Assembly (NCBI GenBank): GCA_033032865.1
Contig: JAWHQI010000068.1
Coordinates: 3,906,001-3,970,000 of the forward strand
Reading direction: 5' to 3'
Source of the DNA: Dactylorhiza incarnata
Taxonomy: Eukaryota > Streptophyta > Magnoliopsida > Asparagales > Orchidaceae
Length of the DNA stretch: 64,000 nt
Shown here: piece by piece, positions 30,164 to 50,968 of the stretch
How the letters are laid out: each line of letters opens with the position of its first letter
Position numbering within the stretch: position 1 is the first letter of the stretch
Made by a program: the position numbers and the translations under genes
Notes under the pieces: model-generated
What the model was told of the DNA's origin: nothing
Databases searched by the model: none
The model's input: the letters and a program-made list of their open reading frames with translations, nothing else

Positions 30164-33100
30164 AGCATCAATCTCATGCCGTTTTCATTATTCAAAAAGC
30201 TAGGTCTAGGAAATCCAAGCCCCACTCGAATGAGTATTCTATTAGCGGATCGTTCTTTAAAATATCTGGTAGGAATAGTCGAGGACGTGCCTGTCAAGGT
30301 TGACAAGTTCATCTTCCCGGTGGACTTTGTCATTCTTGACAAAGAAGAGGATGCCGAAGTACCCCTCATACTCGGCCGCCCCTTCCTTGCCACCTCCCGC
30401 GCTATTATAGACGTAAGTAACGGAAAGCTCCTCCTACGGGTTGGAGACGATGAAGTTACTTTCGGCATAAATTCCTCGACGCGGAACACATTAGAAAACG
30501 ACGATTTGTGTTTTTACCTGGAAGAGTGTTGTGAGTTCGATTCATCCCTCGAGTTAGTCTCACCGACAAGTAGTAATTCTGAGCTCGTCGAGCTCTTTTA
30601 TCTTGAAGAAGAAGTCTCTCACCCCACACCACCCGAGCCATTATTTGTAGAAAATTAAAAATTAAAACTTCTTATGAAGAGCCACCCATGTTAGATTTAA
30701 AGCAACTCCCCCCTCACCTTAAATATTTATTTTTAGAAAAAGAGTCTAAGCTGCCTGTCATCGTTTCATCCGAACTTAGCAACTCAGAAATTTCTGAGTT
30801 GACTATTGTCTTAAGCAAGCACTGCCACGCAATTGCGTGGCAAATTTCGGATATTAAGGGTATAAACCCTTCCTTCTGCACTCATAAAATCTTTATCGAA
30901 GATAATTCCCGCAACTCAGTCCAGCCTCAACGACGACTAAACCCAAATATGAAAGAAGTCGTTAAGGACGAAGTTATTAAACTATTAGACACGGGAATCA
31001 TCTACCCGATATCGGATAGTACTTGGGTTAGGCCAGTACAAGTCGTACCGAAGAAAGGTGGCGTTACGGTAGTTGCGAATGAGAATAATGAATTAATCCC
31101 TACCCGTACCATTACGGGTTGGCGGATGTGCATCGATTATCGAAAACTAAATGATGCCACCCATAAGGATCACTTCCCTCTACCTTTTATCGATCAAATC
31201 CTAGAGCGCCTTTCAGGTCACTCCTACTACTGTTTTCTCGATGGTTTGTCGGGATATTTCCAAATCCTGATTTCGCCCGACGACCAAGAAAAACCACTTT
31301 TACTTGTCCCTTTGGCACCTTCGCTAATCGAAGGATGCCATTTGGTCTTTGTAGCACGCCAGCTACATTCCAAAGATGTATGCTGGCAATATTTGACGAG
31401 TTAGTAGAGGAGGTGATTGAAGTGTTCATGGACGACTTCTCTGTGTTCAGAAATTCATTTAAAAATTGTTTAAAAAATCTCGAGCGCGTGCTGCAGCGAT
31501 GTGTGGAAATGAATTTAGCGCTTAATTGGGAGAAATTCCATTTTATGGTCAAAGAATGATTAGTCATTGGCCATAAAATTTCGGGCAAGGGGATCGAGGT
31601 CGATAGGGACAAGATCGAAGTAATTGAAAAACTCCCGCCAACAACAAACGTAAAAGCTATTAGAAGTTTCCTAGGCCACGCGGGGTTTTATCAGCGCTTT
31701 ATACAAAATTTTTCCAAAATCACAAAGTCGTTAACCCATCTTCTCGAAAAAGAATCCTCCTTTATTTTTAACGATGAATGCCATTTGGCCTTTAAACTTA
31801 TCAAAGAAAAGCTTATAAATTCTCCGATTCTAGTTGCGCCAGATTGGTCGCTACCCTTCGAGATTATGTGCGACGCGAGTGATATTGCGGTAGGCGCTGT
31901 GTTAGGCAAACGGGTGAGTAAGTATTTCCACCCGATTTATTATGCAAGCAAGACACTCACGTCGGCACAAGCAAACTACACCACTACCGAGAAGGAACTC
32001 CTAGCAATCATTTTCGCTTTTGATTAGTTGTGGTCGTATATCACGCTTTCCAAAGTTATCGTCTTCACAGATCACTTCGCGCTTAGGTATCTCTTATGTA
32101 AATTGGACGCCAAGCCCCATCTTTTGCGATGGATCCTCCTCTTGCAGGAGTTTGACTTAGAGCTCCGGGACAAAAGGGGAGCCGAAAACTTGGCGGCCGA
32201 TCATCTTTCCCGTTTAGAAAACCCCGCCTCGAAAGCATTAATAGAAGCCGACATTAATGATAAATTTCCCGAAGAGCGCCTCCTCTCTCTCAAAAATATA
32301 AATTCATCTTCCACCCCCTGGTTTGTGGATTTGGCTAACTATATAGTAGCCCGGGTCCTGCCAAAAGAATTCTCGAGTCAGCAAAAGATGAAATTCTTTT
32401 CTGATTTAAGGAATTTTTTTTGGAGGACCCCCATTTTATTCTGTGTTTGCGCAGACTAGGTGGTGATAAGATGCGTCTCAAGTGAGGAGGGTCTTAAAAT
32501 TTTACGGCATTGTTACGAGGGACCAACCGGTGTTCATTATCATTCAAACCGAACTGTGAGGAAGGCGCTGGAGGCAGTCTTTTATTGGCCCACGCTCTTC
32601 AAAGATGCTCACACCCTTGTGAGTACTTGTGACAGCTGCCAGCGGTCGGGGAACATCTCCCGCCGGGATGAGATGCCCCAAAACATTTTCTTAGAATGCG
32701 AAATTTTCGATCTTTGGGTATAGATTTTGTAGGTCCTCTCCCTCCATCATTTTCAAATAAATATATTCTCGTTGTGGTCGACTATGTGTCGAGGTGGGCG
32801 GAAGCGCAAGCTCTCCCCACCAATGATGCGCGAGTCATCATTAACTTCTTTAAAAAAATTCTCGATTTGGCACGTCGCGCGCTATTGTGAGTGATCGGGG
32901 CACCCATTTTTGCAATAATCAATTTACAAAAATCATAGCAAAATATGGTGTCACGCACAAATTATCCACTGCATATCACCCACAAACGAGCGGCCAAGTC
33001 GAAGTTGTTAATCGAGAATTAACGCGGATTTTAGAAAAAACGCTTTCTATTAATCGGAAGGATTGGGCAATAAAGCTTGATGACGCGCTATGGGCTTATC

Positions 33101-33586
33101 GAACGGCGTACAAGACCGCTATCGGTTGTACACCATATCAAATGGTCTATGGCAATGCTTGCCACCTTCCGGTCGAATTAGAACACCGCGCATTTTGGGA
33201 GCTTAAAGTTTTAAAACTCGATTCTACTTTAGCGGTCGAACAAAGAAAATTTCAAATGAACGAATTATATGAATGGCGAGCGAATGCGTATGAATGGCGA
33301 GCGAACAAAGTTTTATCATGATAAACATATAAAATTTCCGAAGACTTTTTCGCCGGGCGATCTCGTCCTCCTTTATAATTCTCGCCTTCGCCTTTTTCCG
33401 GGAAAATTAAAATCCCGATGGTCCGGACCCTTTATTGTTAAAGAGGTTTGGTCCTATGGGACAATCCTAATTTCCCTCCCAGAAAAAGGTTCCTTCAAAG
33501 TAAATGGGCACCGCCTTAAGTTATATCTTCCGGGAGAGCTAGTAAACGAGAAGAGAGAATCATTATCTTTTCATCCTATAATATGA
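30164..33586 (+). pseudogene. pol: Athila protease-RT-RNase H-integrase (decayed)
   Basis: Continues the protease broken at 17021 (after AGCAT: NLMPFSLFKKLGL), then VPLILGRPFLATSRAIID. RT begins in 30688-31404 ([21 protein letters not shown]), shifts frame near 31310 and resumes at 31335 with MPFGLCSTPATFQRCM and VFMDDFSV. RNase H (CDASDIAVGAVL) precedes stops at 32026 and 32458. The integrase zinc domain and core follow ([46 protein letters not shown]), with shifts near 32715 and 32870. The C-terminus contains an 18-nt direct duplication (YEWRAN twice, about 33268-33306) and ends PFIVKEVW...[11 protein letters not shown]. At least six lesions. Confidence 0.92.
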
Positions 33587-33808
33587 TCGACAAGTGGGTC
33601 AAGCTACGCGACCTTAAACAGAGTGCTTTTGGGAGGCACCCCAAAGTTATCTTTTTATTGTTTTTTTTTCTTCTTTAACAACTTTTGTAGGTAATCACCG
33701 CTTCCCCACAAAAGCTTCAAAAATCAGGGAAGCTCTTTTTCCTTCTCTTTTTTTCCTTGCATTTCTTTATTTGCTTCTTTTTCTTTTCTTTTTACTTCAT
33801 ACTTAGTT

Positions 33809-33832
33809 TTAAACATTGGAGACAATGTTTAA
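33809..33832 (+). other. Conserved GNRA-tetraloop hairpin before internal purine tract
   Basis: TTAAACATTG - GAGA - CAATGTTTAA: a 10-bp perfect stem with a GNRA loop, followed within 5 nt by AGGTATGGGGGTG. The same stem with loop GGGA is at 6093-6116 on the minus strand. Confidence 0.75.
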
Positions 33833-34625
33833 CTTTAGGTATGGGGGTGTAAATTGCTCTTTGTCAATAGTTTTTAAATTAGAAATTTTCAAAAAATTAA
33901 AAAAATTATTAATTAAATTATTTTCTTTTGTTTTTTTAAGCACTTGTAAAACCCAAAAACTCAAATAAAAAATATAGAAAATCGAAAATTTAAATTTTGT
34001 AAAGGGACGTTTGGGATATCATCCCATCACACGTCCTAGTACCGTGAGAACCCTTCACGGGGTATGCCTCGGGAAGTCCAGGAATTAACAAAAATGTTAG
34101 GTTTAAAACTAGTTTCCTTTCTTAAATTATCAAAAATTTAGAAAATGGTAATAGTCAAAAATTCAAAAAAATATAATATTCAAAAATTCAAAAAAAAGAT
34201 AATATAAAAAAAAATCCAAAATTTCTTACACCTCTCTTACTTGTTGTTTTGTGATTTCTTAGAAATCTAGTTGAGAATGTTTATAAGAATTTTTAGGTTT
34301 TTAATTGGCCAAAATTTTGTTTATTATAGTTTGTTAATTTCAAATTTTAGGTAATCTTGTTTTAAGAACCATCTTATGATTTGGGTTTGATTAGAGAATT
34401 TTTGTTAGCACGGCTTCTCTTTTTATCTTTAAATAGCTTCATTTTGTAGTAAATTTGCTAAACCACTTTAGATTTCAATTATATTTTCTTATAGCTCTTT
34501 AGATCTTACGAAATTTAATTTTACTAGAATTTGCTCTCAATATAATTAAATTTATAAACTAGAAATTTTTCCTACCCCACCCCTTTGATGGCTTAAAAAA
34601 AGTGTTTTAAAAGATCATATGTCAT

Positions 34626-34874
34626 GGGAATAAGAGGATAAAATTCATTATTCCCTAAAACATATGCACCCAAAATATTTTAGAAGATTATATGACATGG
34701 AGTAAGAGGATAAAATTCATTACTCCTAAACCAAATACATTTTGGGTTTTTATTAGAAGAGAATTTAAAAAAAAAGATTATATGCATGTGAATAAGAGGA
34801 TAAAATTCATTATTCCCTAAACATATAAAAAAAAGGGAAAAAAATAGAGGTGAGAGGATAAAATTCATCACCTC
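34626..34874 (+). other. Four hairpins: invariant 14-nt loop, co-varying stems
   Basis: Stems and loops: 34626-34655 (GGGAATAA / TTATTCCC), 34699-34726 (GGAGTAA / TTACTCC), 34790-34815 (GAATAA / TTATTC) and 34847-34874 (GAGGTGA / TCACCTC). The loop is GAGGATAAAATTCA in all four. Three of the four are preceded by AGATYATATG. Wherever the left stem arm differs, the right arm differs to match. Confidence 0.88.
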
Positions 34875-35275
34875 AAATCAAAAACCTATTCTTATGTCAA
34901 GCTTTGTAACCCCCCTTAGCCAACATCTTTGATCTAGGTTTAACTTAAGTTATGGAGAGAGCAATATTTAGTAGGTTACTTTTCCTTAAGTTTCTTTTAA
35001 GATAGAGTTCTTATAATTTTAATTTAATCTAGTTTTATTTTTTTCTACAATTTTGGTAAGCTAATTAATTACCTTGAGAAGTCCTTGCCAAAACAATTTT
35101 CTCTCTTTGTAAATCATCATCATAATTTAGGACTTAACTCCTCATAGAATTTATTCTTAACTTAACTTTTGGTTTAATAAAATTTTAGTTTGAAATTAAA
35201 ATTTTTTTGGATGTCTTATATATTATGTCTCACACTTTTGCTCTGGAATAGCAAAACCTCAAGTATGGGGGTATT

Positions 35276-36537
35276 TGATAAGTAGTATTTATATAAGTTT
35301 TTAATAGAAATTTTTGTGAGTATTTAAAATGAATTTTTCCATTTCATGTCAATTTTAGGTTATAAGTAGTTCTTTTTGTAATTTTGATTCTAACTTAGCT
35401 TAATTCCAAAATTTGCAGAATTTTGGGAGAAATTGGTGGATTTCCAAGTCACGCCGAAGGTCACGCACGTGACCAAGGGGCGTGTAACCTGAAGATCAAA
35501 CCAGAGTCGATGCCGCGCTGATTGAGCTAGCCCAGAACAAGTCACGCCCCAGGTCACGCCCGTGACCCAAAGTCACGCCCGTGTCCAAGGGGCGTGTAAT
35601 TTTAGAATCTTCCCAGCAGGCGGCCATCGAGACGTGGAGAAGCCGTCGAGAAGTCAACATGAGTCACGCCCGTGACCCAAATGTCATGGTCGTGACTGTC
35701 CCGCGTGATCTCTGCACGTCGCCGCTCTGCAAGCAAGGTCCACGCCACAATAAATGAAGTCGTCCAAGTACATGCCCGTGACCCTAGTTACACGGGCATG
35801 TAATGTCTGAATTCCTCCTGCCGTCACGCAAAGCCCATGCCACTGCCGGATCTGATGTTAACAGTGTTTACATGCCCTAGGTCACGCCCGTGACTAAGGG
35901 GCGTGTAGCATGAAATTTCTTCCTATAAATTCAGAGGCTCTCCTTGAGTCCATGGTTCAGAAATTTGGAGAGGGGGAGGTGCTGGTAGTGCTGTTAGTGA
36001 GTTTTTCATGTTCATTTTCATGTCTTTCCATTTCATGTTCTCTTTCTCTTCATGTCAAGTAATTCTTTAATTTTCCTTCTTGCAATAGCCTAGTTTAAGC
36101 TTGTAACCTTGTTTTTCCTAGCTTGTAATCTATTTTCCTTAAGGCTTGTAATAGTTTTCATCTTAATAAAAATTAAGTTAGCATAGTTTTCTTCTCCTCT
36201 CTTTCTACTTAGTCAATTTTCCTTATTATGCAATTTTATTTTTCTTCCTCTTCCCCCTCCAGCATGAGCACTATTCTCTTTTACCATCATTTAATCCCTT
36301 CTTTTAGCTTGCAATTTGTCTCTATTTAGCTAGTAAAGCAAAACTCAAAAATCGATTAGATAAGATAATAGTGATTTTCCTCGAAGTAGAAGTAATCAAC
36401 GCACCTCGTGGAATACGAGCTTGGTATTTCTAAATATCCTATACTATAGACGATAAGGTACACTTGCCTTTATCGAATATAGTTTTGGAGAATATCTTTA
36501 ATCACCTTACTTTATAAAACCTTAAATTTCTATATCA
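35276..36537 (+). repeat. Athila LTR shared by two internal regions
   Basis: Starts TGATAAGT right after a purine tract and ends TATATCA right before a tRNA-Asp primer site (36544-36561, one mismatch). It can therefore serve as 3' LTR of the element on the left and 5' LTR of the one on the right. The U3 cluster of GTCACGCCCGTGAC / GGGGCGTGTA words at 35446-35905 precedes TATAAAT at 35924-35930. Confidence 0.88.
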
Positions 36538-36543
36538 AGTTTT

Positions 36544-36561
36544 TGGCACCGTTGCCGGGGA
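36544..36561 (+). promoter_or_regulatory. Primer-binding site, tRNA-Asp type
   Basis: TGGCACCGTTGCCGGGGA: 17 of 18 positions match the perfect site at 11874-11891. It lies 6 nt after the LTR end. Confidence 0.85.
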
Positions 36562-36726
36562 CTTGCGTAGATATTTTGAAAATAGGATAGCTATTAATTT
36601 TATCATGCTTCTTTTTATTTTATTTTGCTTTTTTTAAATTCCAAAAAGAAAAAAAAATATATAATAGTCTAGTTTTCCTCTTTCTTTCTTTTCTTTTCAT
36701 TATCAACCCTTTTTCTTCTTTAGTGT

Positions 36727-37523
36727 ATGACCCGAGGTAGCGCTTCGAATATTCCCTTTGATCCAGAGATCGAGCGAACCCTTTGGCGGCGCCACTGTTC
36801 TCGTGATCAGGAAAATCAAGTAGAATTCGAAGAGTCGATCGGGGACACTAAAACAGCGAATATGGATCCTGATCTTAATCCTCCTAATACTAATACGCCA
36901 AATCATAATGAGGCCGCGCAACGGACCATGTCCTATTATGCGCGGCTGAATTTGGAAGGCACACAGTCGGGTATTGTTCGCCCCACAGTGGCGAACAATA
37001 ATTTTGAGATCAAGTCCAACATCATACAAATGTTGCAACAATTGGTGACCTTCGATGGTCAACCAGACGAAGATCCAAATTCACATATTTCTTACTTTCT
37101 TGAAATTTGCGATACTTTTAAAATCAATGGCATCACCGATGACGCCATTTGATTGTGTCTTTTTCCTTTTTCTTTGCGGTTTAAGGCCAAGCAGTGGCTG
37201 GGCTCCCTACCTAGGGGATCCATCACTACATGGGCCGAAATGGCGGAAAAATTTCTAAATAAATATTTCTCCGCTTCAAAGAACGCTAAATTACGCACGG
37301 ATATTGCGTCATTCATGCAAATCGACTCGGAGACTCTCTATGACACATGGGAGCGCTTCAAGGAGCTTTTGCGTCGATGCCCTCACCACACACTTGCCAC
37401 TTGGCAACAAGTGCAAATATTTTATAATGGCTTAAATCTCCAAACGAGGCAAATGATTGATGCGGTCGCCGGGGGGACGTTAAATAACAAAACCTTGGAT
37501 GCCGCTCAAGAGCTTTTCGAAGA
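36727..37523 (+). pseudogene. gag: Athila gag, 5' part (split by copia insertion)
   Basis: Starts MTRGSASNIPFDPEIE. The gag domain (FEIKSNIIQMLQQ, ICDTFKINGITDDAI, SLRFKAKQWLGSLP, WERFKELLRRCPHH) is interrupted by TGA at 37150-37152 in place of an Arg codon. It reads into AAQELFE at 37523, where the copia element inserts, and continues at 45186. Confidence 0.9.
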
Positions 37524-38832
37524 TGAAAGTGCACAGTTAACCTCACTAGAATTCTCTAGAGGGGGGGGGTGAATAGAGATTTAAGATACTTTGTGCAATT
37601 ATATATATTTATATGTGGTGATCACAGATTAAGGCTTCCCACACACCAACAAGAATTAAACAAGTAAAGAAAATAAATGCAAGAAAAGAAATCACAGCAC
37701 AACACAAAGAAATATAGTGGTTCCCCAAACTTTGGGTAGTCCACTCTTCTACCCCCTTGGTAGGAAATTCACTATCTTGCACTGAGTCTTTTGATAAGGA
37801 GACTCTTAGAACCACCCTGAGTCTTTTGACAAGGAGACTCTTAGAACCAACTGAGTCTTTTGAAAAGGAGACTCTTAGAACCAGTACAACTGAATTTTTT
37901 GAAGAGTGATTCTAAAAACTCTTTTACAATATGTGAGAATGAAAATAAGAAAAAGGAAAATAAGTATTTAAGACAAGAATGAATCTTCTTCCTAGCAAGA
38001 AGATTGGAAGCACAAGAAGTAGTGAATTAAATTTCCCTTCTATAGTGAGAAGGAGATTGTAAGCTTTTCAGAATTTTGCAGCAGTATGGCTTTAGAAGCA
38101 GAAGAAGAAGAATGCTTGATGGTTGCTGCAGAACAATTTCTCTATTCTCTCTCTTTTTCACTTTTGGGAGCTTTTCCTCTTTTTCAATGTGTATATGGTG
38201 GATAACTTCTTCTTGCTCTCTGCCGACCACCTTGTTTTTTATAGCTCTGTTCATTAAAATAACACTATAGGAGAGTAATCAATTAGCAGACAGAGTATTA
38301 GAAAGAAAGAGAAATTTCCATAACAGTTATATCCATAGAAGGAAAGTATTCAATCTGATTTCAAATAATGTCCATAAAGGATTTAATCAATTTAGCCAAG
38401 AATCTATTAGAGGAAAGAATGATTCAGAATGGCTATAAAGAATAAATTGATTCCATATAAATCAGATCTATGAAAGAAGGAAAGAGATCTGGCGATTTTT
38501 TGAATTAATCATAGAAATCGATGTGCGTCGATTACTATTCGACGTAGGCGTCGAATTCGTCCTGGCAGAATGTCGAGAGGAGAATAAGGAAGGTGCGTCA
38601 ACTAGGGTGCGTCGACTTCTCAAGATACGTCGACTAGAAGTCAGAGCTACGTCGACATAGGATACGTCGAATTCTGCTTGGAGCTACTTCGACTCATTCT
38701 GATAGAAACGTCGACTTTATTTCGACGTTGCGTCGAATACTATTCGACGCATATTTACTTACCTTGATTTTCCTTTCTTGGAATTCATATTCAACGCATT
38801 TTCAGGGGTTAAGAGAAATCATTTTCCCAACA
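37524..38832 (-). repeat. Copia 3' LTR (minus strand)
   Basis: TGAAAGTGCA ... TTTCCCAACA on the plus strand; TGTTGGG...TTTCA on the minus. A dense cluster of GCGTCGA words lies at 38520-38752, including a palindrome at 38730-38750 (GCGTCGAAT / ATTCGACGC arms). It lies upstream, in element orientation, of TATAAAAA near 38235. Confidence 0.92.
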
Positions 38833-39047
38833 ATCTCCCCCTATTTGTCTTAACCCTATTTAGAGGGAAATTGTACTAGCATTTAATCAACTTAGCAAGG
38901 CAATTATATAGAACAGAAATATGTCAAACAATCAGAAGAGAAATTAGAAAGAGAGATCATATAAACAAGCTTCCCAGAATTATATAAACAGACTTCATGT
39001 TTAGTATTCAATTATAAGGTAAAGTATATCAGCATTATTTTCAATCA
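38833..39047 (-). other. Copia 3' non-coding tail
   Basis: In element orientation this is the stretch from the ORF stop to the LTR. It ends in a purine-rich tract (plus-strand TCTCCCCCTATTTG at 38834-38847) that should prime plus-strand synthesis. Nothing else is seen. Confidence 0.6.
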
Positions 39048-40914
39048 TTATTCAGGAGGGGTAGGAGGAGTCTTTCTTTTTCTTTTGAATACTTTGGTGG
39101 GTTTCTCTTTCTCAGTAGCAGATTGTACCCTCAGCTCCCCCTGAGTCACAGTGGTGTGCTCCCCCTGGAATGGAACTTCAGATCCTTCTATTTCTATTTC
39201 AGCATTAGTTAAAACAGCATCTGGCTCGACCTGAGCTTCAGCTTCAGCCAACACAGCATCTGACTGTCCTTTTTCATTTTCAGCTTCATTCATAGCAGTA
39301 TCCAGCTCCCCCTGAGTTTCAGTTTCTTTGTCTTTCTCACCATCTGCCACATCTTCCTTTTCAGCTTCATTTTCTGCCCTGCTTGCCTCCCCTTGTAATA
39401 GTACCACTTGATTTGCAGCCTCTCTTGCTATATTGAGTACTTCTATTGTTTGTTCTTCAATATGTAGCTCAGGTACTTTCTCATTTCCAATTGTCTTGAG
39501 CAGTGCAAGACTGTCAGATTTTGAAGAAGGAGGGGATTTGTGTGAGGGAGATTTAAGATTGGAGGGCTTCTCTTCATCTAGCTTCTCCCCCTTCTTGACC
39601 TTCTTGGCCAAGGAGGTTAAGAAAGACTTGGTAACTCTTGAGGAAGAGAGAGATTTCTTCAGACTTTGCACATAGGCACTGGCCCCATCTATTTGGGTGT
39701 GCATGTGTAGGATGGAGGAATAAATCTGGGAGCAGTGCTCATCCAGCATTGCTTGGAATGTTTGAGCTGCTGATGCAATGCACTGAGTGAGGAGAGCTTC
39801 AGTGGATGCAGATGGTTCATGTTGTGGTTGGTGATGAGTAGAGAGTGGTGGAGGTGGTGATGAAGCTGGAGAGAAGTTAGTTGATACATGAGGTATGGGT
39901 GATAAAGGAGGTGGAGAGGATGAGAAAGTAGGAGGAGGAAGAGATGGAGAAACTGCTGTTTGAGCAGGTGTTTGAGAAGAGGTAGGTAGAGTAGGAGTTG
40001 TGAGAGTGGAAGAGACTAGTGGAGTAGATGATGGTGGTAGAGAAGGAGTGTTTCTTTGAGGAGGAGGAGGAGGAGAAGATGGATGACCAGGAGAATTAGG
40101 AGGAGAGGGAGTTCTGTCAGGAATGGAACCAGGCTTGGGGATTTGCCTGGTCCATTTGGAGAAGAGGGCAATGAACATCCTCTTTCCAGGAGGGATAGGA
40201 ATTCCTTTTGACCTACAGAGGTCAGGGAAGGAGTGGAAGAGTACTTGACTCATAATCCTCATGTAGGCATTCTCTTTGTGAGAATATCTAGAGCCTATCA
40301 TCTTGAGTAGACAGCTGGCCCAGTCTATTTTCTTCTTCAATACAAGGGACCCCATGATGTTCAGTTGCTGCTTGGGTACTGCATCATGGGCTGAAATTTT
40401 GCATAGTAGTATCTTTCCTACTATATCTGCTAGCAGTCTGTACTCCTCAGAAAAGTCTATTTTCTTTAGATGGATTGGTTTATCCCTTGAAAACTTCATG
40501 GTGGTTAGCAGATGCTTGATTTCATCAGGTGTGAGGTCTATAGATTCATCACCTAATAGGGGAATGATAAAGACTTATGAGGTTACTCTTTAGAAATTGA
40601 TTTCCTTTCCCTATTTTATTTGAACAAAGATAATATTAGGATATACCTGAAGGAAGATCAAAGGTGGTCCTAAATTGTTCTACAGAGATTGAGACTGGTC
40701 TCTCATAGATTGTTCCCTGGATTTCTCCTTGTTCAGATATCTGAACAAGAGTCATCAGCTCTGTGAGCTCTGTTTCCAGGAGCTTGCATCTTGTGGAGAT
40801 GAGTTTGTCCAATCCAGCTTCAGTGAAGAGAGCTATGATGTTCTTATAATTTTCTGCAGTGGCTTAGAAGGAGTCGAGGTCAATGTCGAAACCAGAGTTT
40901 ATCTTGGGAGCCAT
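39048..40914 (-). CDS. Extra ORF of the copia element, two exons, Pro-rich
   Basis: Exon 1 40914-40647, GT-AG intron 40646-40553, exon 2 40552-39048; the joint keeps frame (phase 1). Exon 2 is open for over 480 codons. The N-terminal part (LFTEAGLDKLIS, ISVEQFRTTFDLP, DLTPDEIKHLLTTMKFSRDKP, SRYSHKENAYMRIMSQVLF) resembles uncharacterised plant transposon-associated proteins that use the DEIKHLLT-type phrase. The middle is a Pro/Ser-rich linker, then a probable coiled coil and a very acidic Glu/Ala-rich tail ending in KVFKRKRKTPP. Exon 1 has a TAA at codon 17 (40864-40866), so this copy needs a downstream start or is broken. Gag- and pol-related motifs are absent. Confidence 0.72.
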
Positions 40915-41330
40915 TTTAGGTCAGTGAAAGAGAGGAGGAAATGGCTGGACTAAGGAGCAAGAAGGATAAAGGATGCAGAGTAGTGAAGGTTTCTAACTGA
41001 AGAGTCTTTTTAAGTCAGGTGAAGCGTCGAAACGGGACTCAATTCGAGGCTTATTCGGTACTTCAGTGGATGTGACCGAAAATATTTTAGCATTGCCGCT
41101 CGTTTTTATGAAGTCGACGTTACGTCGAGTGGAATTCGACTTAAGCGTCGATACAGCCCGCGTTAAGATGTTAGGGTTTCGTATCGACGTATGCGTCAAT
41201 TTCACTTATTGAGTTGAGTCATCGACGGTGCGTCGATTAGAAGTCGACGTGACTTTTGATTTTCCTGAAGAATTTTAGGTGTTTATTTCTTTTTATCTCT
41301 TCCTAGTTCTAAGTCAGTCTAGGACTAATT
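40915..41330 (-). promoter_or_regulatory. Candidate internal promoter of the copia extra ORF
   Basis: Upstream of the ATG at 40914 on the minus strand is a second cluster of the LTR word: CGTCGA/TCGACG copies at 41030, 41113-41150 and 41221-41256. A weak TATA-like TTAAAAAG lies at 41006-41013. The word match to U3 is clear; promoter activity is inference. Confidence 0.45.
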
Positions 41331-42475
41331 TTTACAGATAGTTTGATTGGTTGTGCCAACATTGTTTGGCAAGGTGGCCAGTTTTGTTACATATATGGCA
41401 CTTGATTATCTTGTTTTACGGACCCACTGTTCCCCGAAAATCTTTACTTGAAGAGGGGATTTGGAGGAGATCTCTCGAAAAGTATTTAGTGCTCATTTCG
41501 GTCAACTCTCTATTATCTTTCTTATGATAATTTGAGTTTAGAGAAGGATAGAAGGGTTGATTAGGATAGAAAGTTTGATTAGGATGGGAATTTTGGGTAC
41601 CAGGTTTAGGGTAGAAATTTTGGTTAGGATAGAGGTGTTGATTAGGATGGAAATCATGGTTAGGATGAATGGATCCTGAATGGGAATTATAGAAGGTTTT
41701 TGGAGAATAGGCATTTAAGTAGCTCTGAATTTTTGTGCGTCGATATCCATTCGATGCATGTTGATAGTTGCTTCGATTTATATTCGGCGCTTTCTCCCTA
41801 TAGCGTTGATCTGATATCGACGCATGGAAAAAGTTGCGTTGATTGGAAGTCGACGTACTTTTATTCAAGTGTCGAGTAGAGGTCGAGGCATCTGAGAGGT
41901 TGCGTTGAGTAAAAGTTGACGCACTATCATTCATGCGTCGATATAAAGTCGACGCAACTGTATCTTCACACATTTTCTTTTTCCCTTTTTTCTGATTTTG
42001 TTCTTTTATGTATGGTTTCTTTTGGCTTAGTTGCTTCTTCAGATGAAGTTTGAGAGTCATCAGCTGAATAATATGATGTTTCATCAGATTGTTTTATTTC
42101 CTTGAGAGAGTCTTCTTCCTTATTTAGTGAGTCTTTTTCTTGGTTTGATTTGATGGGTTTTGTGAATTTTACAGGGATCATCCAAGCAGGTTTGTTGGAT
42201 GGAACTTGGCTGGTCGAGGGATCAGCCCCTAGACCAAGATTTTAATGTCTCCTTGTTTGTTGTTCAGTGATTTCCTTGAGAGTATATCTTCTCATGTTTA
42301 TTCATTCTTCAAAGGCTTTTGCCTGGGATACCTTATCCTTAAGGAGCTGGTTTTCTATTCTAGCCCTTTCTACTTCCTTTTCTATGATGTTTACTTCAAA
42401 ATTTTTAGAGCATTTATCCTCTCTATTTCTCTGGTTTTTAGCCACATTAATTTGTTCCTTTAGATCTTTAATTTC
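41331..42475 (-). pseudogene. Copia gag C-terminal extension (decayed)
   Basis: Reading on past the stop at 42476 gives a coiled-coil-like continuation (IKDLKEQINVAKNQ, VERARIENQLLKDK) with further stops. Next comes a piece at 41966-42181, then a Ser/Thr/Asn/Arg-rich repeat region in another frame (41416-42084). Finally a second CCHC knuckle, CHICNKTGHLAKQC, lies near 41357-41398. The repeats at about 41730-41955 are built from GCGTCGA-type DNA words; 41560-41690 encodes a run of HPNQxxYPN-type repeats. Confidence 0.65.
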
Positions 42476-43687
42476 TTATGTATCTTTTAGTTGATCTAGA
42501 CACATTCCCATAAAATCATTTCTGAAATTATCACATTGAAAATCTATTTCATCAAAAATGCTTACCTCATCCTTATCCTCAGATTCCTCTATGAGAATAA
42601 GGCTATCTTCTTTTTCATCTTCAGAAGATATGCTTTCTTCTGATCCCGTCTCACTCCATGATTTAGCACCATCATCATTCTTTGAGCCTTCAAGGGCCAT
42701 TAAGCATAGATCTTCTTGCTTAGGCTCTTCATTGTCACTCTTAGAAGAGGAGTTGTCCTCAGAGTATGTATCACTCCAGGCTTCTGCCATAAAGCCTCTT
42801 TCTTTCTTCTTCTCATTTTTCTTGAGATCTTTCTTTTTCAGATCTTTCTTTATCTCAGCATTTTCTGAACATTCTGGGGCAATATGTCCAAGTTTCCTGC
42901 AGGAGTAACAAATAATTTCTTTAGTAGGAGTTTTGTCATACCTAGGTTTTGACTCTCTCCTTCTTGATCCATCTGTCCTGACCCATTTCTTGAATTTTCT
43001 GGCCAGGAAACTGAATAGTTCTTCTTCAGTGACAGAGCTTCTTTCTTCTGTTGCTTTTAATGCAATGTTCCTGTCTTTTGAAGAAGTTGGGGTGTTTTCT
43101 CTTCTCTTCTTCTCTTCTCTGGTTTTCAGCAGTTGCTCATAGGATCTGAGTTTTCCTAAGAGAGCATCTGTTGAAATTTCCCTTTGTCCTCTTGTGTCTC
43201 TTATTGCCCATATCCTTGAGTCCCATGAGCTTGGGAGACTCATCAGCAATTTGTCATTGATCTCTGTAAGAGAGATTTCTCTATCCAAGTCCCTTAGTTG
43301 ATTGATGATCAGACTAAATCTGTCATACATCTCAGAGATGCTTTCTTCATTCTTCTTTTGGAAGTTCTCATATTGAGAGATCAATAGAGCCTTCCTATCT
43401 TTTCTTTCTTCAGCACTTCCTTCTACCATCTTTATGAGAGCCTCCCAAATTTCTTTGGATGATTCACAATCAACAACCCTTTCAAAGATTTCATCAGAGA
43501 GGGTTGAGACCAGAATATTTACAGCCTTTGCATCACATGTTCCTGCCTTTTTCTCTTCAACTGTCCACTCAGCCTTTGGGACAAGTGTTTGAGTCACTTC
43601 ACCACTTGAGTCTTTTCTATAAGGCTTGGGAGGACCTGTCAAGATAACATTAAATAAATCTTCATCAATAGAGTTCATATAAATCAT
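42476..43687 (-). CDS. gag: Copia-type gag with zinc knuckle
   Basis: 403 codons open. The natural start is probably ATG at 43768 (MAQIKDYASTRPPM), 27 codons further out in the same frame, cut by TGA at codon 15 (43724-43726). The gag domain about residues 25-190 (CDAKAVNILVSTLSDEIFERV, SKEIWEAL, SISEMYDRFSLIINQLRDL, LLMSLPSSWD) matches the copia UBN2-type gag. Knuckle CYSCRKLGHIAPEC at about residue 270. The tail is Lys/Glu/Asp-rich. No protease follows, unlike autonomous copia. Confidence 0.88.
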   Translation of the reverse strand: MIYMNSIDEDLFNVILTGPPKPYRKDSSGEVTQTLVPKAEWTVEEKKAGTCDAKAVNILVSTLSDEIFERVVDCESSKEIWEALIKMVEGSAEERKDRKALLISQYENFQKKNEESISEMYDRFSLIINQLRDLDREISLTEINDKLLMSLPSSWDSRIWAIRDTRGQREISTDALLGKLRSYEQLLKTREEKKRRENTPTSSKDRNIALKATEERSSVTEEELFSFLARKFKKWVRTDGSRRRESKPRYDKTPTKEIICYSCRKLGHIAPECSENAEIKKDLKKKDLKKNEKKKERGFMAEAWSDTYSEDNSSSKSDNEEPKQEDLCLMALEGSKNDDGAKSWSETGSEESISSEDEKEDSLILIEESEDKDEVSIFDEIDFQCDNFRNDFMGMCLDQLKDT

Positions 43688-43855
43688 AATTCTTGTTTTC
43701 CAAACTGCAAACTTTTTAAGATTTCACATTGGTGGTCTGGTGGAAGCATAATCTTTGATTTGTGCCATGTGAAAAATAATTGTTAGAGAAATATATATAT
43801 ATATAAATAAGAGGTAGGATCTTTTTGATCAAGGAGTTAACTTTTTTAGATCAAC

Positions 43856-43872
43856 CTCCCTCTGATACCAAT
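43856..43872 (-). promoter_or_regulatory. Primer-binding site, initiator-Met tRNA
   Basis: On the minus strand ATTGGTATCAGAGGG directly follows the 5' LTR end. TGGTATCAGAG is the standard complement of plant tRNA-iMet used by copia elements. Confidence 0.9.
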
Positions 43873-45180
43873 TGAAAGTGCATAGTTAACCTCTCTAGAA
43901 TTCTCTAGAGGGGGGGTGAATAGAGATTTAAAATACTTTATGCAATTATATATATTTATATGTGGTGATCACAGATTAAGGCTTCCCACACACCAACAAG
44001 AATTAAACAAGTAAAGAAAATAAATGCAAGAAAAGAAACCACAGCACAACACAAAGAAATATAGTGGTTCCCCAAAACATTGGGTAGTCCACTCTTCTAC
44101 CCCCTTGGTAGGAAATTCACTATCTTGCACTGAGTCTTTTGATAAGGAGACTCTTAGAACCACCCTGAGTCTTTTGACAAGGAGACTCTTAGAACCAACT
44201 GAGTCTTTTGAAAAGGAGACTCTTAGAACCAGTACAACTGAATTTTTTGAAGAGTGATTCTAAAAACTCTTTTACAATATGTGAGAATGAAAATAAGAAA
44301 AAGGAAAATAAGTATTTAAGACAAGAATGAATCTTCTTCCTAGCAAGAAGATTGGAAGCACAAGAAGTAGTGAATTAAATCTCCCTTCTATAGTGAGAAG
44401 GAGATTGTAAGCTTTTCAGAATTTTGCAGCAGTATGGCTTTAGAAGCAGAAGAAGAAGAATGCTTGATGGTTGTTGCAGAACAATTTCTCTATTCTCTCT
44501 CTTTTTCACTTTTGGGAGCTTTTCCTCTTTTTCAATGTGTATATGGTGGATCACTTCTTCTTGCTCTCTGCCGACCACCTTGTTATTTATAGCTCTATTC
44601 ATTAAAATAACACTATAGGAGAGTAATCAATTAGCAGGCAGAGTATTAGAAAGAAAGAGAAATTTCCATAACAGTTATATCCATAGAAGGAAAGTATTCA
44701 ATCTGATTTCAAATAATGTCCATAAAGGATTTAATCAATTTAGCCAAGAATCTATTAGAGGAAAGAATGATTCAGAATGGCTATAAAGAATAAATTGATT
44801 CCATAGAAATCAGATCTATGAAAGAAGGAAAGAGATCTGGCGATTTTTTGAATTAATCATAGAAATCGATGTGCGTCGATTACTATTCGACGTAGGCGTC
44901 GAATTCGTCCTGGCAGAACGTCGAGAGGAGAATAAGGAAGGTGCGTCGACTAGGGTGCGTCGACTTCTCAAGATACATCGACTAGAAGTCAGAGCTACGT
45001 CGACATAGGATACGTCGAATTCTGCTTGGAGCTACTTCGACTCATTCTGATAGAAACGTCGACTTTATTTCGGCGTTGCGTCGAATACTATTCGACGCAT
45101 ATTTACTTACCTTGATTTTCCTTTCTTGGAATTCATATTCAACTCATTTTCAGGGGTTAAGAGAAATCATTTTCCCAACA
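43873..45180 (-). repeat. Copia 5' LTR (minus strand)
   Basis: 1308 bp. GCGTCGA words at 44870-45100 with the perfect palindrome at 45078-45098. TATAAATA on the minus strand at 44584-44591, downstream of the cluster in element orientation. Confidence 0.92.
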
Positions 45181-45507: not shown

Positions 45508-46979
45508 TGTAAGACCCTCTTTTTTTTTTCTTTTAAAACCGGGTCTTACTGCCTAGAACCGCTGTCTTGCGGTGACACCATTACACCCAATGGTCGCCGC
45601 CACAAGACGCTGATCCTGCCGGCTATTCATCATCATCTAGGCCAACCATAATCACAGTAATTGAATTATTAAATGAAACTAGTCCACAAAATCACAATAT
45701 ATATTTATCATAATACATGATTACAATGTCCACGATGAGAATGAACTAAAATAGTAAGGGCTTACGCCCAGTACATGTTCAAATATAGTGCAACAACACT
45801 CTCACTCTACATCTATGCGGAAGCTGTCAAACACTGACTTCATGCATCTGTAGCTGCTGCTGCGACGATGTGTAATGGCTGCTCCGCTTCATCTCGTCCT
45901 CCTGTCCTGTCTCCTGAATGAGGTCCTGCTATTCCGACACATCATCCCTAAAATGATGAGGTCCACTGACCGTCAGTCTATAAGACTCAGCATATTCCTC
46001 ACCGCCTCCACCCGCGACTCCTAGGCACCGTGCGGGAGGAGGAAGCGGGGGACATCAAAGGATAAATCAAAAGCAGGTGACAAGCGGGTATTACTAACCT
46101 AGCAGTATATGTCAATAGCTAACAACATGTATATAAAAGCATTTACATCTAGGAATTATATAAATAGCTAACAACATGTATATATATATACATCAAACAC
46201 CTTTCTAGCAAATCTATCATAACAAATCAAGGGGCCACAAGGAAACCGAGTAGTATATAAACGAGCGTCAAAGTGAGTATACTCACGCAGTTATAAGATA
46301 GTCTGAGCAGCTAGAAAACTACACCAGAGTAGTTATAAAGAAAACTAGAGCAAGTAAAGAAACAACTAGAGCAGCTATGAAGGTAACCTTAACTTATGCG
46401 TAGACACACACAAACACATAAGCTAAGGGATCTGGCAAGAAGTAAACTCATCATATAAAAGAGCCCATACTAGTTTATACGATGAGGTCTCAATTTTATG
46501 CAAGTATGCTATGATATGATATGCAATGCAATGCAATGCAACACCATGGTGCAACTCACGCACACGACTCTGTACGTACAGACCTTTAGTTCCCACTTTT
46601 CGGAGGTAGCTAACCTCTCGGGCACCTCCCTTCGTGGTCAAACGGTGGTAGAGGAGCGGGCGTCTCCTCACCTAGGTGGGTAAGTCACACTACCCGACCT
46701 AGGCCCTAACGTACGCTGTGATACCGGTACCCGGTACTCACGAGCTCCTGTGTACTAAACTATATTGGCCAGGCAGGGTTTAGGGAATCCATCCCTTCGG
46801 ACGCACAGTGAAACAACCTGTCCCCTAATAAAACCACTAGCACTGCCTAGTCAACGAACTATTGTCGGTGTGACGACTAAGCCAGACCCGAAGACCCAGC
46901 ACATCTTATGCACATACAATTATGTATTATCCCTTACTACCGAGCCTCCAGATCGCAAATCTAAATCAACATTTATAAA

Positions 46980-48530
46980 GTAGAGCCTACCATTCGCTAG
47001 ACTACCTCAGTCTTATATTTAAGCTACGAGCCTACCACTTGCTAGACTACACCGGTCTTATTAGACTACGAGCATACCGCTCGCTAGACTACACTAGTAT
47101 ATATTTAAGCTACGAGCCTACCGCTCGCTAGACTACACCAGTCTTATATTTAAGCTACGAGCCTACCGCTCGCTAGACTACACCAGTCTTATCTTAAGCT
47201 ACGTGCCTACCGCTCGCTAGACTACACCAGTCTTATATTTAAGCTACGAGCCTACCGCTCGCTAGACTACACCAGTCTTATCTTAAGCTACGAGCCTACT
47301 GCTCGCTAGACTATACCAGTCTTATCTTAAGCTACGAGCCTACCGCTCGCTAGACTACATCAGTCTTATCTTAAGCTATGAGCCTACCACTCGCTAGACT
47401 ACACCAGTCTTATCTTAAGCAACGAGCCTACCGCTCGCTAGACTACACCAGTCTTATATTAAGCTACGAGCCTACCGCTCGCTAGACTACACCAGTCTCA
47501 TATTTAAGCTGCGAGCCTACCGCTCGCTATACTACACCAGTCTTATCTTAAGCTACGAGCCTACCGCTCGCTTATCTAGACCAGTCTTATCTTAATCTAC
47601 GAGCCTACCGCTCGCTAGACTGCACCAGTCTTATATTTAAGCTACGAGCCTACCGCTCGCTAGACTACACCAGTCTTATCTTAAGCTACGAGCCTACCGC
47701 TCGCTAGACTACACCAGTCTATATTTAAGCTACGAGCCTACCGCTCGCTAGACTACACCAGTCTTATATTTAAGCTACGAGCCTACCGCTCGCTAGACTA
47801 CACCAGTCTTATATTTAAGCTACGAGCCTACCGCTCGCTAGACTACACCAGTCTTATATTTAAGCTACGAGCCTACCGCTCGCTAGACTACACCAGTCTT
47901 ATCTTAAGCTACGAGACTACCGATCTCTAGACTATACCAGTCTTATCTTAAGCTACGAGCCTACCGCTCGCTAGACTACACCAGTCTTATCTTAAGCTAC
48001 GAGCCTACCACTTGCTAGACTACACCAGTCTTATTTTTAAGCTACGAGCCTACCGCTCACTAGACTACACCAGTCTTATCTTAAGCTACGAGCCTACCGC
48101 TCGTTAGACTATACCAGTCTTATCTTAAGCTACGAGCCTACCGCTCGCTAGACTACACCAGTCTTATATTTAAGCTATGAGCCTACCGCTCGCTATACTA
48201 CACCAGTCTTTTCTTAAGCTACGAGCCTACAGCTCGCTAGACTACACCAGTCTATATTTAAGCTATGAGCCTACCGCTCGCTAGACTACACCAGTCTTAT
48301 ATTTAAGCTACGAGCCTACCGCTCGCTAGACTATACCAGTCTTATATTTAAGCTACGAGTCTACCGCTCGCTAGACTACACCAGTCTTATATTTAAGCTA
48401 CGAGCCTACCGCTCGCTTGACTACACCAGTCTTATATTTAAGCTACGAGCCTACCGCTCGCAGGACTATCCCAGTCCTTCCTTATAACCCGAGCCTACTG
48501 CTCGCAGGACTATCCCAATCCTTCCTTATA
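46980..48530. repeat. 44/45-bp twin-hairpin satellite, about 33 copies
   Basis: The unit contains two adjacent perfect hairpins with 5-bp stems and 5-nt loops: CGAGC-CTACC-GCTCG and AGACT-ACACC-AGTCT. Spacers alternate between TTATATTTAAGCTA (45-bp unit) and TTATCTTAAGCTA (44-bp unit). In the last two units the second hairpin is AGGACT-ATCCC-AGTCCT, a 6-bp version changed on both arms. Confidence 0.93.
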
Positions 48531-50008
48531 TACCGAGCCAGTTTGGGATGGAAGTCAACTTGTCATGTTCTCCTACTTAACTAATCTTGTCTATAATTTA
48601 GTTAACCTTAGAAGCTTTAGGGTTAACCTTGGACTTCCGGAGGGTTACCCGGTGAGGGGCTCGCACCGGTACTAGGAAGTGTGACGGACCGACACCCCGA
48701 ACTTCCTCTTCCCAAGGCACTTAATCTTGTTGGTATCTACCTCTTTTTGCATGATCCCCGTTTTCCTCTCCAATTACATTAAATCTCTAAGATGAGTTAA
48801 ACTTGGCACTTAGGAGTGGGGGGAGTTCTTTGAACTCCAACTCCACCAACTGTGACTAGGTGCTGACTCTCCCGTCGTTACATTCTAAGCTCGAGTTCCC
48901 TTCTTCTCCTAGGAACTACACACATACACCTAAACTTCTCATCCTTCTTGGACCCACACTCATATTCTTCGTCATCCTTAATCCAGGGTTTGCCTTAGAT
49001 ATTTCTCGACTTCTCCCTTGAGCAATTACCTTAAGATGGCTCACCCGGCTAAGGGTAGTTTTACTTCCATAAAATCATTTAACACAGATGAGTTGTCTGT
49101 GGGGCCCTTGATGAGGTCTAACCTCCTTTTTATATCATTATAAATTCCTGCACTTATTGCTTTGCTAAACGCACCCCAACCCTTATTTCCCATGATGCCC
49201 TTAGATGTGTTCTTCCAAATAATCTGAGCCTTCATAATAATCAAAGAGTTAATAGTTCTATGTGTGAAGGTCAGTGGTGGTCTAAATCATATAAAATAGT
49301 TTTACTATTCGCAGACCAAATGAGATTGAGCTAGATTTGACTCCTATGGTGCAATCTTGATTATATCCTATCCAAATGAGTTCCAATTATTACCATAGGT
49401 TCACATTTTGTAATGATCTAACAACCTCAAGGCCTACACTTCATACTCTTCCAGGGAATTCTTAATCATAGTTTCTATTCAGATAGATGGGATGAAGGTT
49501 CTACGCAATAAGTATCATCTACGAATCTCTATAAATTCTGATGAATTCACACCAGCATAGTATTGGTCTAAAAACCTCAAACACCAAGTTTCACCTTTTC
49601 TAGGGATTATTTAACCATGATTTCTATTTTACATAAATGGTGTGCCAATTAGGGATTACACTACAACTACCATCTACAGGTCTCTATAAATTCTGGGAAA
49701 ATTACAATAGCACAAATTGGCCTAAAAACACCAGATCATAAGTCTCATATAAAACCAAGGTATATTCGTCGTTAATTATCAATTATTGCATTTTTGCTAA
49801 ACGCACCCAATTTTCCTACACCCCTAAGTCCAAAATTTCAACTTGAAGTTCAGAGGAATCCACTCATGCATATGAGTTGAATTCATAACTAGAGGTGGTT
49901 GTTATCATGTCCAAGGCATGGGCAAATATTCAAGGTATTTGCATGAGTCAAAACCACTAAACGCACCGGATACACTTTTATACATGTCTCTCTAAAAGTG
50001 ACCTAAAA

Positions 50009-50968
50009 GGAGCTACACTTGACCAAATGACATGAAGTCAGTGGCATTTTAAAGGTATCATCAAGATCTACAATACTTATGTTGATCACTAACTCCAGAA
50101 ATGAACCTAACCTAGGTGGAATTAACATGCAAGTGCTGTACAAAATGTTTAACATAGCAAAACACTATTATAGACATGTCACACCAAAAATGTTATAAAA
50201 AGAGCTATACTTGACCAAATGGCATGAAGTCAGTGGCATTTTAAAGGTATCATCAATATCTACAATACTCATGTTGATCACTAACTCCAGAAATGAACCT
50301 AACCTAGGTGGAATTAACATGCAAGTGATGTACAAAATGTTTAACATAGCAAAACACTACTATAGACATGTCACAACAAAAATGGTATGGAAAGAGCTAT
50401 ACTTGACCAAATGACATGAAGTCAAAGTCATTTTAAAGGTATCATCAAGATCTACAATACTCATGTTGATCACTAACTCCAGAAATGAACCTAACCTAGG
50501 TGGAATTATCATGCAAGTGTTGTACAAAATGTTTAACATAGCAAAACACTATTATAGACATGTCACACCAAAAATGGTATAGAAAGAGCTATAATTGACC
50601 AAATGACATGAAGTCGGTGGAATTTTAAAGGTATCATCAAGATCTACAATACTCATGTTGATCACTAACTCCGGAAATGAACCTAACCTAGGTGGAATTA
50701 ACATGCAAGTGCTGTACAAAATGTTTAACATAGCAAAACACTATTATAGACATGTCACACAAAAAATGGTATAGAAAGAGCTATACTTGACCAAATGACA
50801 TGAAGTCAGTGAAATTTTAAAGGTATCATCAAGATCTACAATACTCATGTTGATCACTAACTCCAGAAATGAACCTAACCAAGGTGGAATTAACATGCAA
50901 GTGATGTACAAAATGTTTAACATAACAAAATACACATATAAACACGTCACACCATTCACTACTTTTGA
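50009..50968. repeat. 192-bp tandem repeat, 5 copies
   Basis: Units start at 50009, 50201, 50393, 50585 and 50777 (AGAGCTATACTTGACC-type start). They differ by scattered substitutions; the last decays after about 160 bp. The other LTR copy of this element is truncated inside its first unit (59551). Confidence 0.92.

What the first reader, a model, noticed from the sequence alone, without database searches (positions are those of the whole stretch)
34626..34874. Four hairpins with an identical 14-nt loop and co-varying stems
Within 250 bp, four inverted repeats enclose exactly the same loop, GAGGATAAAATTCA, but have different stems: GGGAATAA/TTATTCCC, GGAGTAA/TTACTCC, GAATAA/TTATTC, GAGGTGA/TCACCTC. 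Substitutions in one arm are matched in the other, the classic mark of conserved pairing with a recognised loop. It lies in the 3' non-coding part of an Athila element, between integrase and the 3' LTR, where env would be. No such structure is visible in the other Athila copy (4523-6399). A protein- or RNA-binding loop (packaging, dimerisation, export) is inference. Template-switch correction of quasi-palindromes could also make matched arms without selection.
Basis: partly seen in the sequence, partly recalled or inferred. Interest (0 to 1): 0.88.

Follow-up and report, generated by a model that had tools for sequence, protein, structure and literature searches.

The report
Identical-loop RNA hairpin array in retrotransposons
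A large family of plant jumping genes carries, just before its 3' end, a short row of hairpins that keep the same loop while their stems change in matched pairs, which points to a signal in the element's RNA that something must recognise, and copies that have lost their protein genes still carry it.

Summary
The window's 3.27-Gb plant genome holds 20,355 exact copies of the 14-nt loop, against 13 for the reversed pattern. In 52 of 53 loci fetched by that loop it lies in the homologous Athila-type 3' non-coding region, 1-4 hairpins each. Stems differ between hairpins and lineages, yet arms match: at the second pair, 10,312 A-T and 8,610 G-C against 161 G.T and 212 A.C genome-wide. A covariance model built without the window finds its four hairpins. 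Ten of 86 loci have the layout of gag-pol-less derivatives; the two checked lack gag and pol, and one is very young. I read this as a cis-acting RNA domain, most likely a multivalent packaging signal read by Gag, with a CTE-like export signal as main rival. Structure is shown; ligand and step are inferred. Against it: sampling was by the loop itself, tree-based compensatory counts are modest, strand tests do not favour sense RNA, and no other plant species could be searched.

The parts
34626..34655 (+). hairpin 1: arms GGGAATAA/TTATTCCC, loop 34634-34647
   Evidence: model hit E 1.1e-10
34699..34726 (+). hairpin 2: arms GGAGTAA/TTACTCC, loop 34706-34719
   Evidence: model hit E 9.8e-11
34790..34815 (+). 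hairpin 3: arms GAATAA/TTATTC (next pair broken in this copy), loop 34796-34809
   Evidence: model hit E 6e-8
34847..34874 (+). hairpin 4: arms GAGGTGA/TCACCTC, loop 34854-34867; no outer stem seen
   Evidence: model hit E 1.6e-9
34616..34666 (+). outer stem of hairpin 1: CATATGT 34616-34622 with ACATATG 34660-34666
   Evidence: folds; 93.5% of cells paired over 31 rows but no compensatory change
34779..34827 (+). outer stem of hairpin 3: TATATG 34779-34784 with CATATA 34822-34827
   Evidence: read from the sequence; fold
34668..34747 (+). possible stem enclosing hairpin 2: ACCCAAAAT 34668-34676 with ATTTTGGGT 34739-34747
   Evidence: inverted repeat I7; 90.3% of cells paired, no compensatory change; not predicted by the consensus fold
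33809..33832 (+). upstream 10-bp hairpin with GAGA (GNRA-type) loop, just before an internal polypurine-like motif, in the same 3' non-coding region
   Evidence: core motif in 71 of 86 loci with up to 2 mismatches
33839..33848 (+). internal polypurine-like motif GTATGGGGGT
35263..35272 (+). 3' polypurine tract GTATGGGGGT just before the LTR
   Evidence: found 401-518 nt after the last loop start in 75 of 86 loci
35276..36537 (+). LTR (TGATAAG...TATCA)
   Evidence: ends read; the same kind of ends with a 5-bp target duplication at L020

Best explanation
The four hairpins are a cis-acting RNA domain of an Athila-type Ty3/gypsy LTR retrotransposon family, lying between the end of pol and the 3' polypurine tract. 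Each hairpin presents the same 14-nt loop on an interchangeable stem; one to four are repeated, the first three, in many copies, inside wider stems. Shown, with the sampling caveat below: the loop is the same between lineages and between hairpins of one element while the arms differ in a matched way, and the array is carried by gag-pol-less derivatives, at least one of which transposed very recently. Inferred: the repeated loop is a multivalent docking site for an RNA-binding protein, most likely the family's own Gag, which selects the genomic RNA, and that of the non-autonomous derivatives, for packaging. I hold 'selected cis-acting nucleic-acid structure' at about 0.85, 'acts as RNA' at about 0.75, and 'packaging by Gag' at about 0.35-0.4.
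For: Genome-wide abundance 20,355 against 13 control. Pair 2 of the stem genome-wide: 18,922 of the 19,295 exact-loop sites that also have A-T at pair 1 and A/G with T/C at pair 2 are paired, 10,312 A-T and 8,610 G-C. 60 distinct hairpins: 105 double-change cells against 46 in shuffles, covariation 0.479 against 0.278, best at register 0. 31 rows of the H1-H2 domain: 17 double-change cells against 3.3. A model built without the window finds the window's four. In L009-L061, 47 of 64 hairpins beyond one exact hairpin per locus have the exact loop, while different lineages align at about 65-78% where they align. Ten of 86 loci have the gag-pol-less layout, on several branches of the flank tree; L020 has LTRs with 1 mismatch in 1,497 aligned bases, target duplication CTTAG and no gag/pol match. 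L098 has four exact loops with 5-6 of 7 inner pairs in flanks with no other similarity to the window or L009-L061.
Against: All loci were found by the exact loop, so lineages that lost it are invisible, and derivatives without the array would not have been seen; the other Athila copy in the window has none. Many of the sampled loci are close relatives (79-90% to the window). Fitch counts on the flank tree are modest: hairpin 1, 3 coincident changes against 0-1 with slid partners; hairpin 4, 11 against 5-6. In one search the number of pairs with a double change (6) is not above shuffles (5.3). Three related loci (L024, L041, L055) share an unmatched change in hairpin 1, and two lineages have a bulged T. 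In young clades shown the fourth hairpin no longer carries the loop, and deep lineages carry other loops at the first two positions. Sense-RNA wobble is not favoured: G.T 161 against A.C 212 genome-wide, 48 against 70 in the fetched hairpins; sense and antisense fold equally well on average over 15 loci. Nothing here shows transcription, a ligand or a step.
Confidence: 0.45

Rival explanations
1. [quoted passage not shown]
For: Same place (between pol and 3' LTR) and repeated identical loops, which fit a host factor; it would also serve gag-pol-less derivatives. CTE and RTE anatomy is recalled.
Against: No Rfam match; no splicing evidence; nothing tested.
Confidence: 0.22
2. Signal for reverse transcription or 3'-end formation (strand transfer, plus-strand priming at the nearby polypurine tract, polyadenylation).
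For: The last loop starts 401-518 nt before the 3' polypurine tract in 75 of 86 loci, and the array lies between two polypurine-like motifs in 59 of 86.
Against: A repeated identical loop is not needed for priming; loop complementarity to the start of the LTR is hardly above shuffles (longest match 7.04 against 6.70, n=75).
Confidence: 0.1
3. DNA-level element: palindromic protein-binding sites or cruciforms, for example a host factor that reads GGATAA.
For: Strand-neutral pattern: A.C at least as common as G.T, sense and antisense fold alike.
Against: A duplex-DNA site does not need matched arms; nested outer stems, bulges and U.G pairs in deep-lineage outer stems (CTTATG/CATAGG in 6 of 21 short-loop candidates listed) fit RNA better.
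Confidence: 0.12
4. No selection: duplication of a hairpin plus template-switch correction of quasi-palindromes keeps the arms matched, and the loop is simply inherited.
For: Template switching is common in reverse transcription (recalled); two lineages carry a bulged T; most changes on the tree are unmatched, though 40 of the loci had been picked for a mismatch.
Against: It does not hold a 14-nt loop constant across lineages whose flanks align at 65-78%, nor between hairpins whose arms differ; conversion tracts would have to end at the loop edges; L098 keeps loop and most pairs in flanks with no other similarity to those tested.
Confidence: 0.06
5. Small-RNA source or decoy: the foldbacks feed or block Dicer, as suggested for the Athila6 3' region that makes siRNA854.
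For: In Arabidopsis a region 3' of gag/pol of Athila6 yields 21-22-nt siRNAs on activation, and hairpin-like foldback was one of three models there (PMC3276544, passages).
Against: Stems of 6-9 bp look too short for Dicer (recalled); selection on the element to be silenced is not expected.
Confidence: 0.05

Closest known systems
Retroviral packaging signals (psi)
   Same: Stem-loops with exposed conserved loops that Gag reads; cis-acting; needed by derivatives moved in trans (recalled)
   Different: Classical psi lies in the 5' leader (abstract starts only, in the listing, and recall); here the repeats are at the 3' end and share one exact loop
Constitutive transport elements (MPMV CTE; IAP RTE), recalled; CTE papers seen only as references in passages of PMC10309623
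   Same: Repeated structured motifs between the last gene and the 3' LTR
   Different: No Rfam match here; CTE loops are internal, these are terminal
Athila6 3' region making siRNA854 (PMC3276544, 12 passages read)
   Same: Same named element lineage and place, 3' of gag/pol; a foldback was one proposed model
   Different: No array of identical-loop hairpins in the passages read; a shared GAGGATA word is recalled only and untested
Tandem repeats between pol and 3' LTR in Tat/Retand/Ogre elements (PMC11963269 and PMC6317226, passages read)
   Same: Short repeats in the 3' non-coding region of related Ty3/gypsy elements; function given as unknown in PMC11963269
   Different: Those are sequence repeats; 'hairpin' and 'secondary structure' do not occur in the main text of PMC11963269, nor 'hairpin' in that of PMC6317226. 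Here the repeated unit is a structure whose stems vary
LARD/TRIM non-autonomous LTR retrotransposons (search listing only)
   Same: L020 has LTRs, PBS and PPT and no detected gag/pol
   Different: Here a specific structured domain shared with the coding family is carried
Phage coat-protein hairpins (MS2 type), recalled
   Same: Works like: small hairpin with fixed loop and bulged A, usable in arrays
   Different: No relation claimed

Membership tests
Athila clade of Ty3/gypsy | gag-pol with RT, RNase H and integrase, long non-coding or env-like region before the 3' LTR | tested here: met
   Pfam RVT_1, RT_RNaseH and rve hits in both copies, some below the curated cut-off in the window element; pol of the second copy aligns to 30658-33462 at 74%; the first loop follows the last pol match by about 1.15 kb
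Athila clade of Ty3/gypsy | placement in a reverse-transcriptase tree with named Athila elements | not tested
Conserved RNA structure | compensatory changes above shuffles and slid controls | tested here: met
   on most measures (not on the number of pairs with a double change: 6 against 5.3); whole-genome pair-2 counts; modest on a tree; R-scape not available
Conserved RNA structure | sense-strand wobble excess (G.U over A.C) | tested here: not met
   161 against 212 genome-wide; 48 against 70
Rfam families | match to a curated covariance model | tested here: not met
   0 matches up to E 1 in 33400-36600; 0 at gathering score in the window
Retroviral packaging signal | needed in cis, binds Gag, sufficient for packaging | not testable with these tools
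   Only its presence in gag-pol-less copies could be seen
Dimer initiation site | palindromic apical loop of 6 or more nt | tested here: not met
   Longest palindrome in the loop is AATT (read from the sequence)
CTE/RTE | binds an export factor and exports unspliced RNA | not testable with these tools
   none

The most novel reading that the evidence does not exclude
A repeated, loop-identical hairpin array at the 3' end is the packaging (Gag-recognition) signal of a large Athila family and the passport by which gag-pol-less derivatives are moved in trans: a 3' psi-like domain of a new architecture in plant LTR retrotransposons, whose valency (1-4) differs between lineages.
Probability: 0.35. 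Interest if true: 0.87.

Novelty: new variant of a known kind. Interest (0 to 1): 0.77.

Why it matters
How plant LTR retrotransposons choose their RNA for packaging or export is, to my knowledge, hardly mapped, and so is how gag-pol-less derivatives are mobilised. A short, exactly defined loop present about twenty thousand times in one genome gives a direct bait for the protein that reads it and a marker for which derivatives are served. It also suggests that the 'empty' 3' region of such elements can hold a selected RNA domain.

Tried and rejected
Relatives elsewhere: pairs of loops 44-74 nt apart gave 0 in viral contigs and 0 in prokaryote genomes; pol as a query gave no confirmed relative in viral contigs; TRAGAGGATAAAATTCATYA gave 0 in viral contigs and 7 prokaryote matches whose flanking bases do not continue the stem, which I take as chance. 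Plant genomes of other species are not held, so presence outside this genome is untested.

Loop pairing with the LTR start looked possible in the window (inverted repeat I1) but is hardly above shuffles across 75 loci. Loop-loop kissing rejected for lack of a palindrome. Sense-strand tests by wobble and by folding energy gave no support. A conservation profile over 12 loci was of little use upstream and at hairpins 1-3, where repeated hairpins are misplaced by the aligner; the bins of hairpin 4 (0.74) and of the 3' polypurine tract (0.90) stand above most neighbours (about 0.6-0.66), but so does 34358-34397 (0.72).

A flank-based, loop-independent sample of the family was wanted and never answered: the main gap.

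Rows dropped: the degenerate fourth hairpin of GAGGATAAATTCCA type (7 loci: L009, L014, L019, L030, L038, L048, L049) was set aside before the counts; counted as non-exact it would make 47 of 64 into 47 of 71. Hairpins with more than 2 loop mismatches were not looked for in those counts. L021, L039, L072, L076, L081, L087, L098 and L100 (8 of 93 loci) were left out (the first part, hairpins per locus, covers 52 of L009-L061). L021 is included. One search was a careless alignment with a wrong third row and was not used.

Full report
WHAT IS THERE. The loop occurs nowhere else in the window even with two mismatches. Single-hairpin fold z-scores are -3.1, -2.5, -0.2 and -4.7; the 311-nt domain has z -4.0. 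The element runs on the plus strand: reverse transcriptase, RNase H and integrase pieces, a pol end, a 10-bp hairpin with a GAGA loop followed by an internal polypurine-like motif (33809-33848), about 0.8 kb of AT-rich sequence, the array, and after about 0.4 kb the polypurine tract and LTR at 35276.

HOW COMMON. The window lies in a 3.27-Gb genome of 3,184 contigs. The exact loop occurs 20,355 times there, the same letters read backwards 13 times. I fetched the 53 loci that cover the first 100 listed places. In 52 of 53 the locus matches the window's 3' region; L021 does not and has no arms. These 52 loci hold 116 hairpins with up to two loop mismatches: 12 loci have one, 22 two, 12 three and 6 four; in 84 of 116 the inner six pairs are all Watson-Crick. 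Forty more loci, 20 from each of the two listed mismatch sets (each list shows 100 places; taken from near the top, with some skipped), hold 115 hairpins; the 75 that were not themselves the mismatch index are 82.3% Watson-Crick over seven pairs, and 7 of 115 have two or fewer of seven pairs. Spacing is similar within a lineage, for example 71-72 between the first two hairpins in the window-like group and 69 in the L017 group.

COVARIATION. Between lineages and between hairpins the arms differ (GGGAATAA, GGAGTAA, GATGTAA, GAAGTAA, GGAAAATRA, GGAAATGA, GAGGTGA, GGGGTGA, each with its complement), while the loop does not. Over 52 distinct arm pairs the inner seven positions are 87.4% Watson-Crick against 63.6 +- 2.3% when 3' arms are re-dealt. 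Over 60 distinct hairpins 105 cells changed on both sides against 46 in shuffles, highest at register 0, though the number of pairs with any double change, 6, is not above shuffles. The whole genome gives one pair's full table: A-T 10,312, G-C 8,610, G.T 161, A.C 212. Copies are related, so these are not independent events. A Fitch count on a flank tree of 86 loci finds 3 coincident changes in hairpin 1 (58 loci; 0-1 with slid partners) and 11 in hairpin 4 (53 loci; 5-6 slid) among 39 and 81 changes; the class 'hairpin 4' is defined only by lack of an outer stem, and the 40 mismatch-picked loci inflate single changes. Two lineages have a bulged T (GGGG(T)TGA/TCACCCC, GGAG(T)TGA/TCACTCC), and L024, L041 and L055 share an unmatched change. 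A model built from 60 hairpins outside the window finds the four window hairpins at E 1e-10 to 6e-8; the only other hit up to E 10 is E 0.015 at 62934, and the other Athila copy has none.

LARGER STRUCTURE. In 31 aligned rows of the H1-H2 domain (the window and 30 loci), five helices named from row L016 are 90-98% paired: outer stem of hairpin 1, inner stem, a stem enclosing hairpin 2, its outer and inner stems; 17 double-change cells against 3.3. The outer stem of hairpin 1 and the enclosing stem have no compensatory change, so they are weakly supported, and RNAalifold on its own predicts neither. In deep lineages the first two hairpins have the same outer plan with a short other loop (CCTATG/CATAGG, CTTATG/CATAAG, CCTGTG/CACGGG), and only the fourth carries the 14-nt loop. 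In six copies of young clades shown (L016, L020, L024, L033, L044, L048) it is the fourth that has lost it. So the loop is constant where present, but which hairpin carries it changes.

SELECTION ON THE LOOP. Since loci were found by the exact loop, I set one exact hairpin per multi-hairpin locus aside and counted the others: 47 of 64 have the exact loop (47 of 71 with the degenerate fourth hairpins). Many of these loci are close relatives of the window element (79-90%), but other lineages, such as L012, L017 and L025, align at about 65-78% where they align and still have two or three exact loops beyond the first. L098 shows four exact loops with 5-6 of 7 inner pairs in flanks that share nothing else with the window or with L009-L061; no gag or pol match was found within 9.9 kb around it (L109), and L110, around L100, has no pol match but a TGGAAGGCAACCCA box 0.9 kb upstream.

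GAG-POL-LESS COPIES. Of 86 loci, 26 have a pol match upstream, 28 the GGGAGGCA box of the pol end, 22 neither (often for lack of fetched sequence), and 10 have instead the primer binding site 0.8-1.3 kb upstream of the array, with the GNRA-hairpin motif in between. Nine of the ten are in the tree: L020, L023, L024, L041 and L055 form one well-supported clade; L013, L014, L015 and L042 lie apart from it, some on weakly supported branches; the tenth, L091, aligns best to L042. Only L020 and L024 were checked further: L020 has LTRs of 1,497 aligned bases with one mismatch, CTTAG on both sides and no gag/pol match; L024 has LTRs about 98.7% identical over 1,676 aligned columns and no gag/pol match. 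Such copies must be moved in trans, so what they keep is a candidate cis signal. Caveat: derivatives without the array would not have been seen.

WHICH FUNCTION. A repeated fixed loop on free stems is what a protein docking site looks like. Packaging by the family's Gag explains presence without coding capacity and variable copy number; export explains the place near the 3' end equally well. Kissing dimerisation (no palindrome), loop-LTR pairing and small-RNA production (short stems) fit less. Strand tests are neutral or lean the other way, so a DNA-level role is not excluded.

LITERATURE. Ten searches of the open library showed no title or abstract start on such an array among the papers listed; several listings were cut (for example 10 of 1,772, 15 of 430), and subscription journals are mostly missing. 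Passages were read of PMC3276544, PMC11963269, PMC6317226 and PMC10309623; everything else is listing, abstract start or recall as marked.

ODDS.

Noticed in passing
33809-33848 and 6110-6070 (minus): Perfect 10-bp hairpin TTAAACATTG/CAATGTTTAA with GNRA-type loop (GAGA here, GGGA in the other copy) directly before a polypurine-like TATGGGGGTG, shared by both Athila copies; core motif in 71 of 86 loci.
   Followed up: partly
L020 with L111 and L112 (G000:C11:7563300-7568700): Very young gag-pol-less LTR element with 5-bp TSD that keeps GNRA hairpin, internal polypurine motif and two loop hairpins.
   Followed up: yes
L098/L109 and L100/L110: Same loop hairpins in flanks without other similarity to the window or L009-L061; host element unidentified.
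   Followed up: partly
L018, L028, L050, L053, L059, L060, L072, L085, L088: Deep lineages with short-loop hairpins (mostly AAGATTTC) in matched outer stems at the first two positions.
   Followed up: partly
G000:C42:2322-10939 and G000:C33:5603301-5609563: Loop hairpins recur at steps of about 4.2-4.3 kb and 3.1 kb, as if whole short elements stood in tandem.
   Followed up: no
L081 and L087: Two loci with the same foreign 5' flank joined at the loop's 5' edge; perhaps one recombinant that was duplicated or spread.
   Followed up: no
35276-37524: Order pol, array, LTR, primer binding site, gag: the LTR seems shared by two element bodies; gag is then cut by a copia-type insertion 37524-45180 with LTRs 98.4% alike.
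   Followed up: no
45508-50036 and 55020-59552: 4.5-kb repeat at 95% identity that contains an array of minisatellite units of about 43-45 bp.
   Followed up: no
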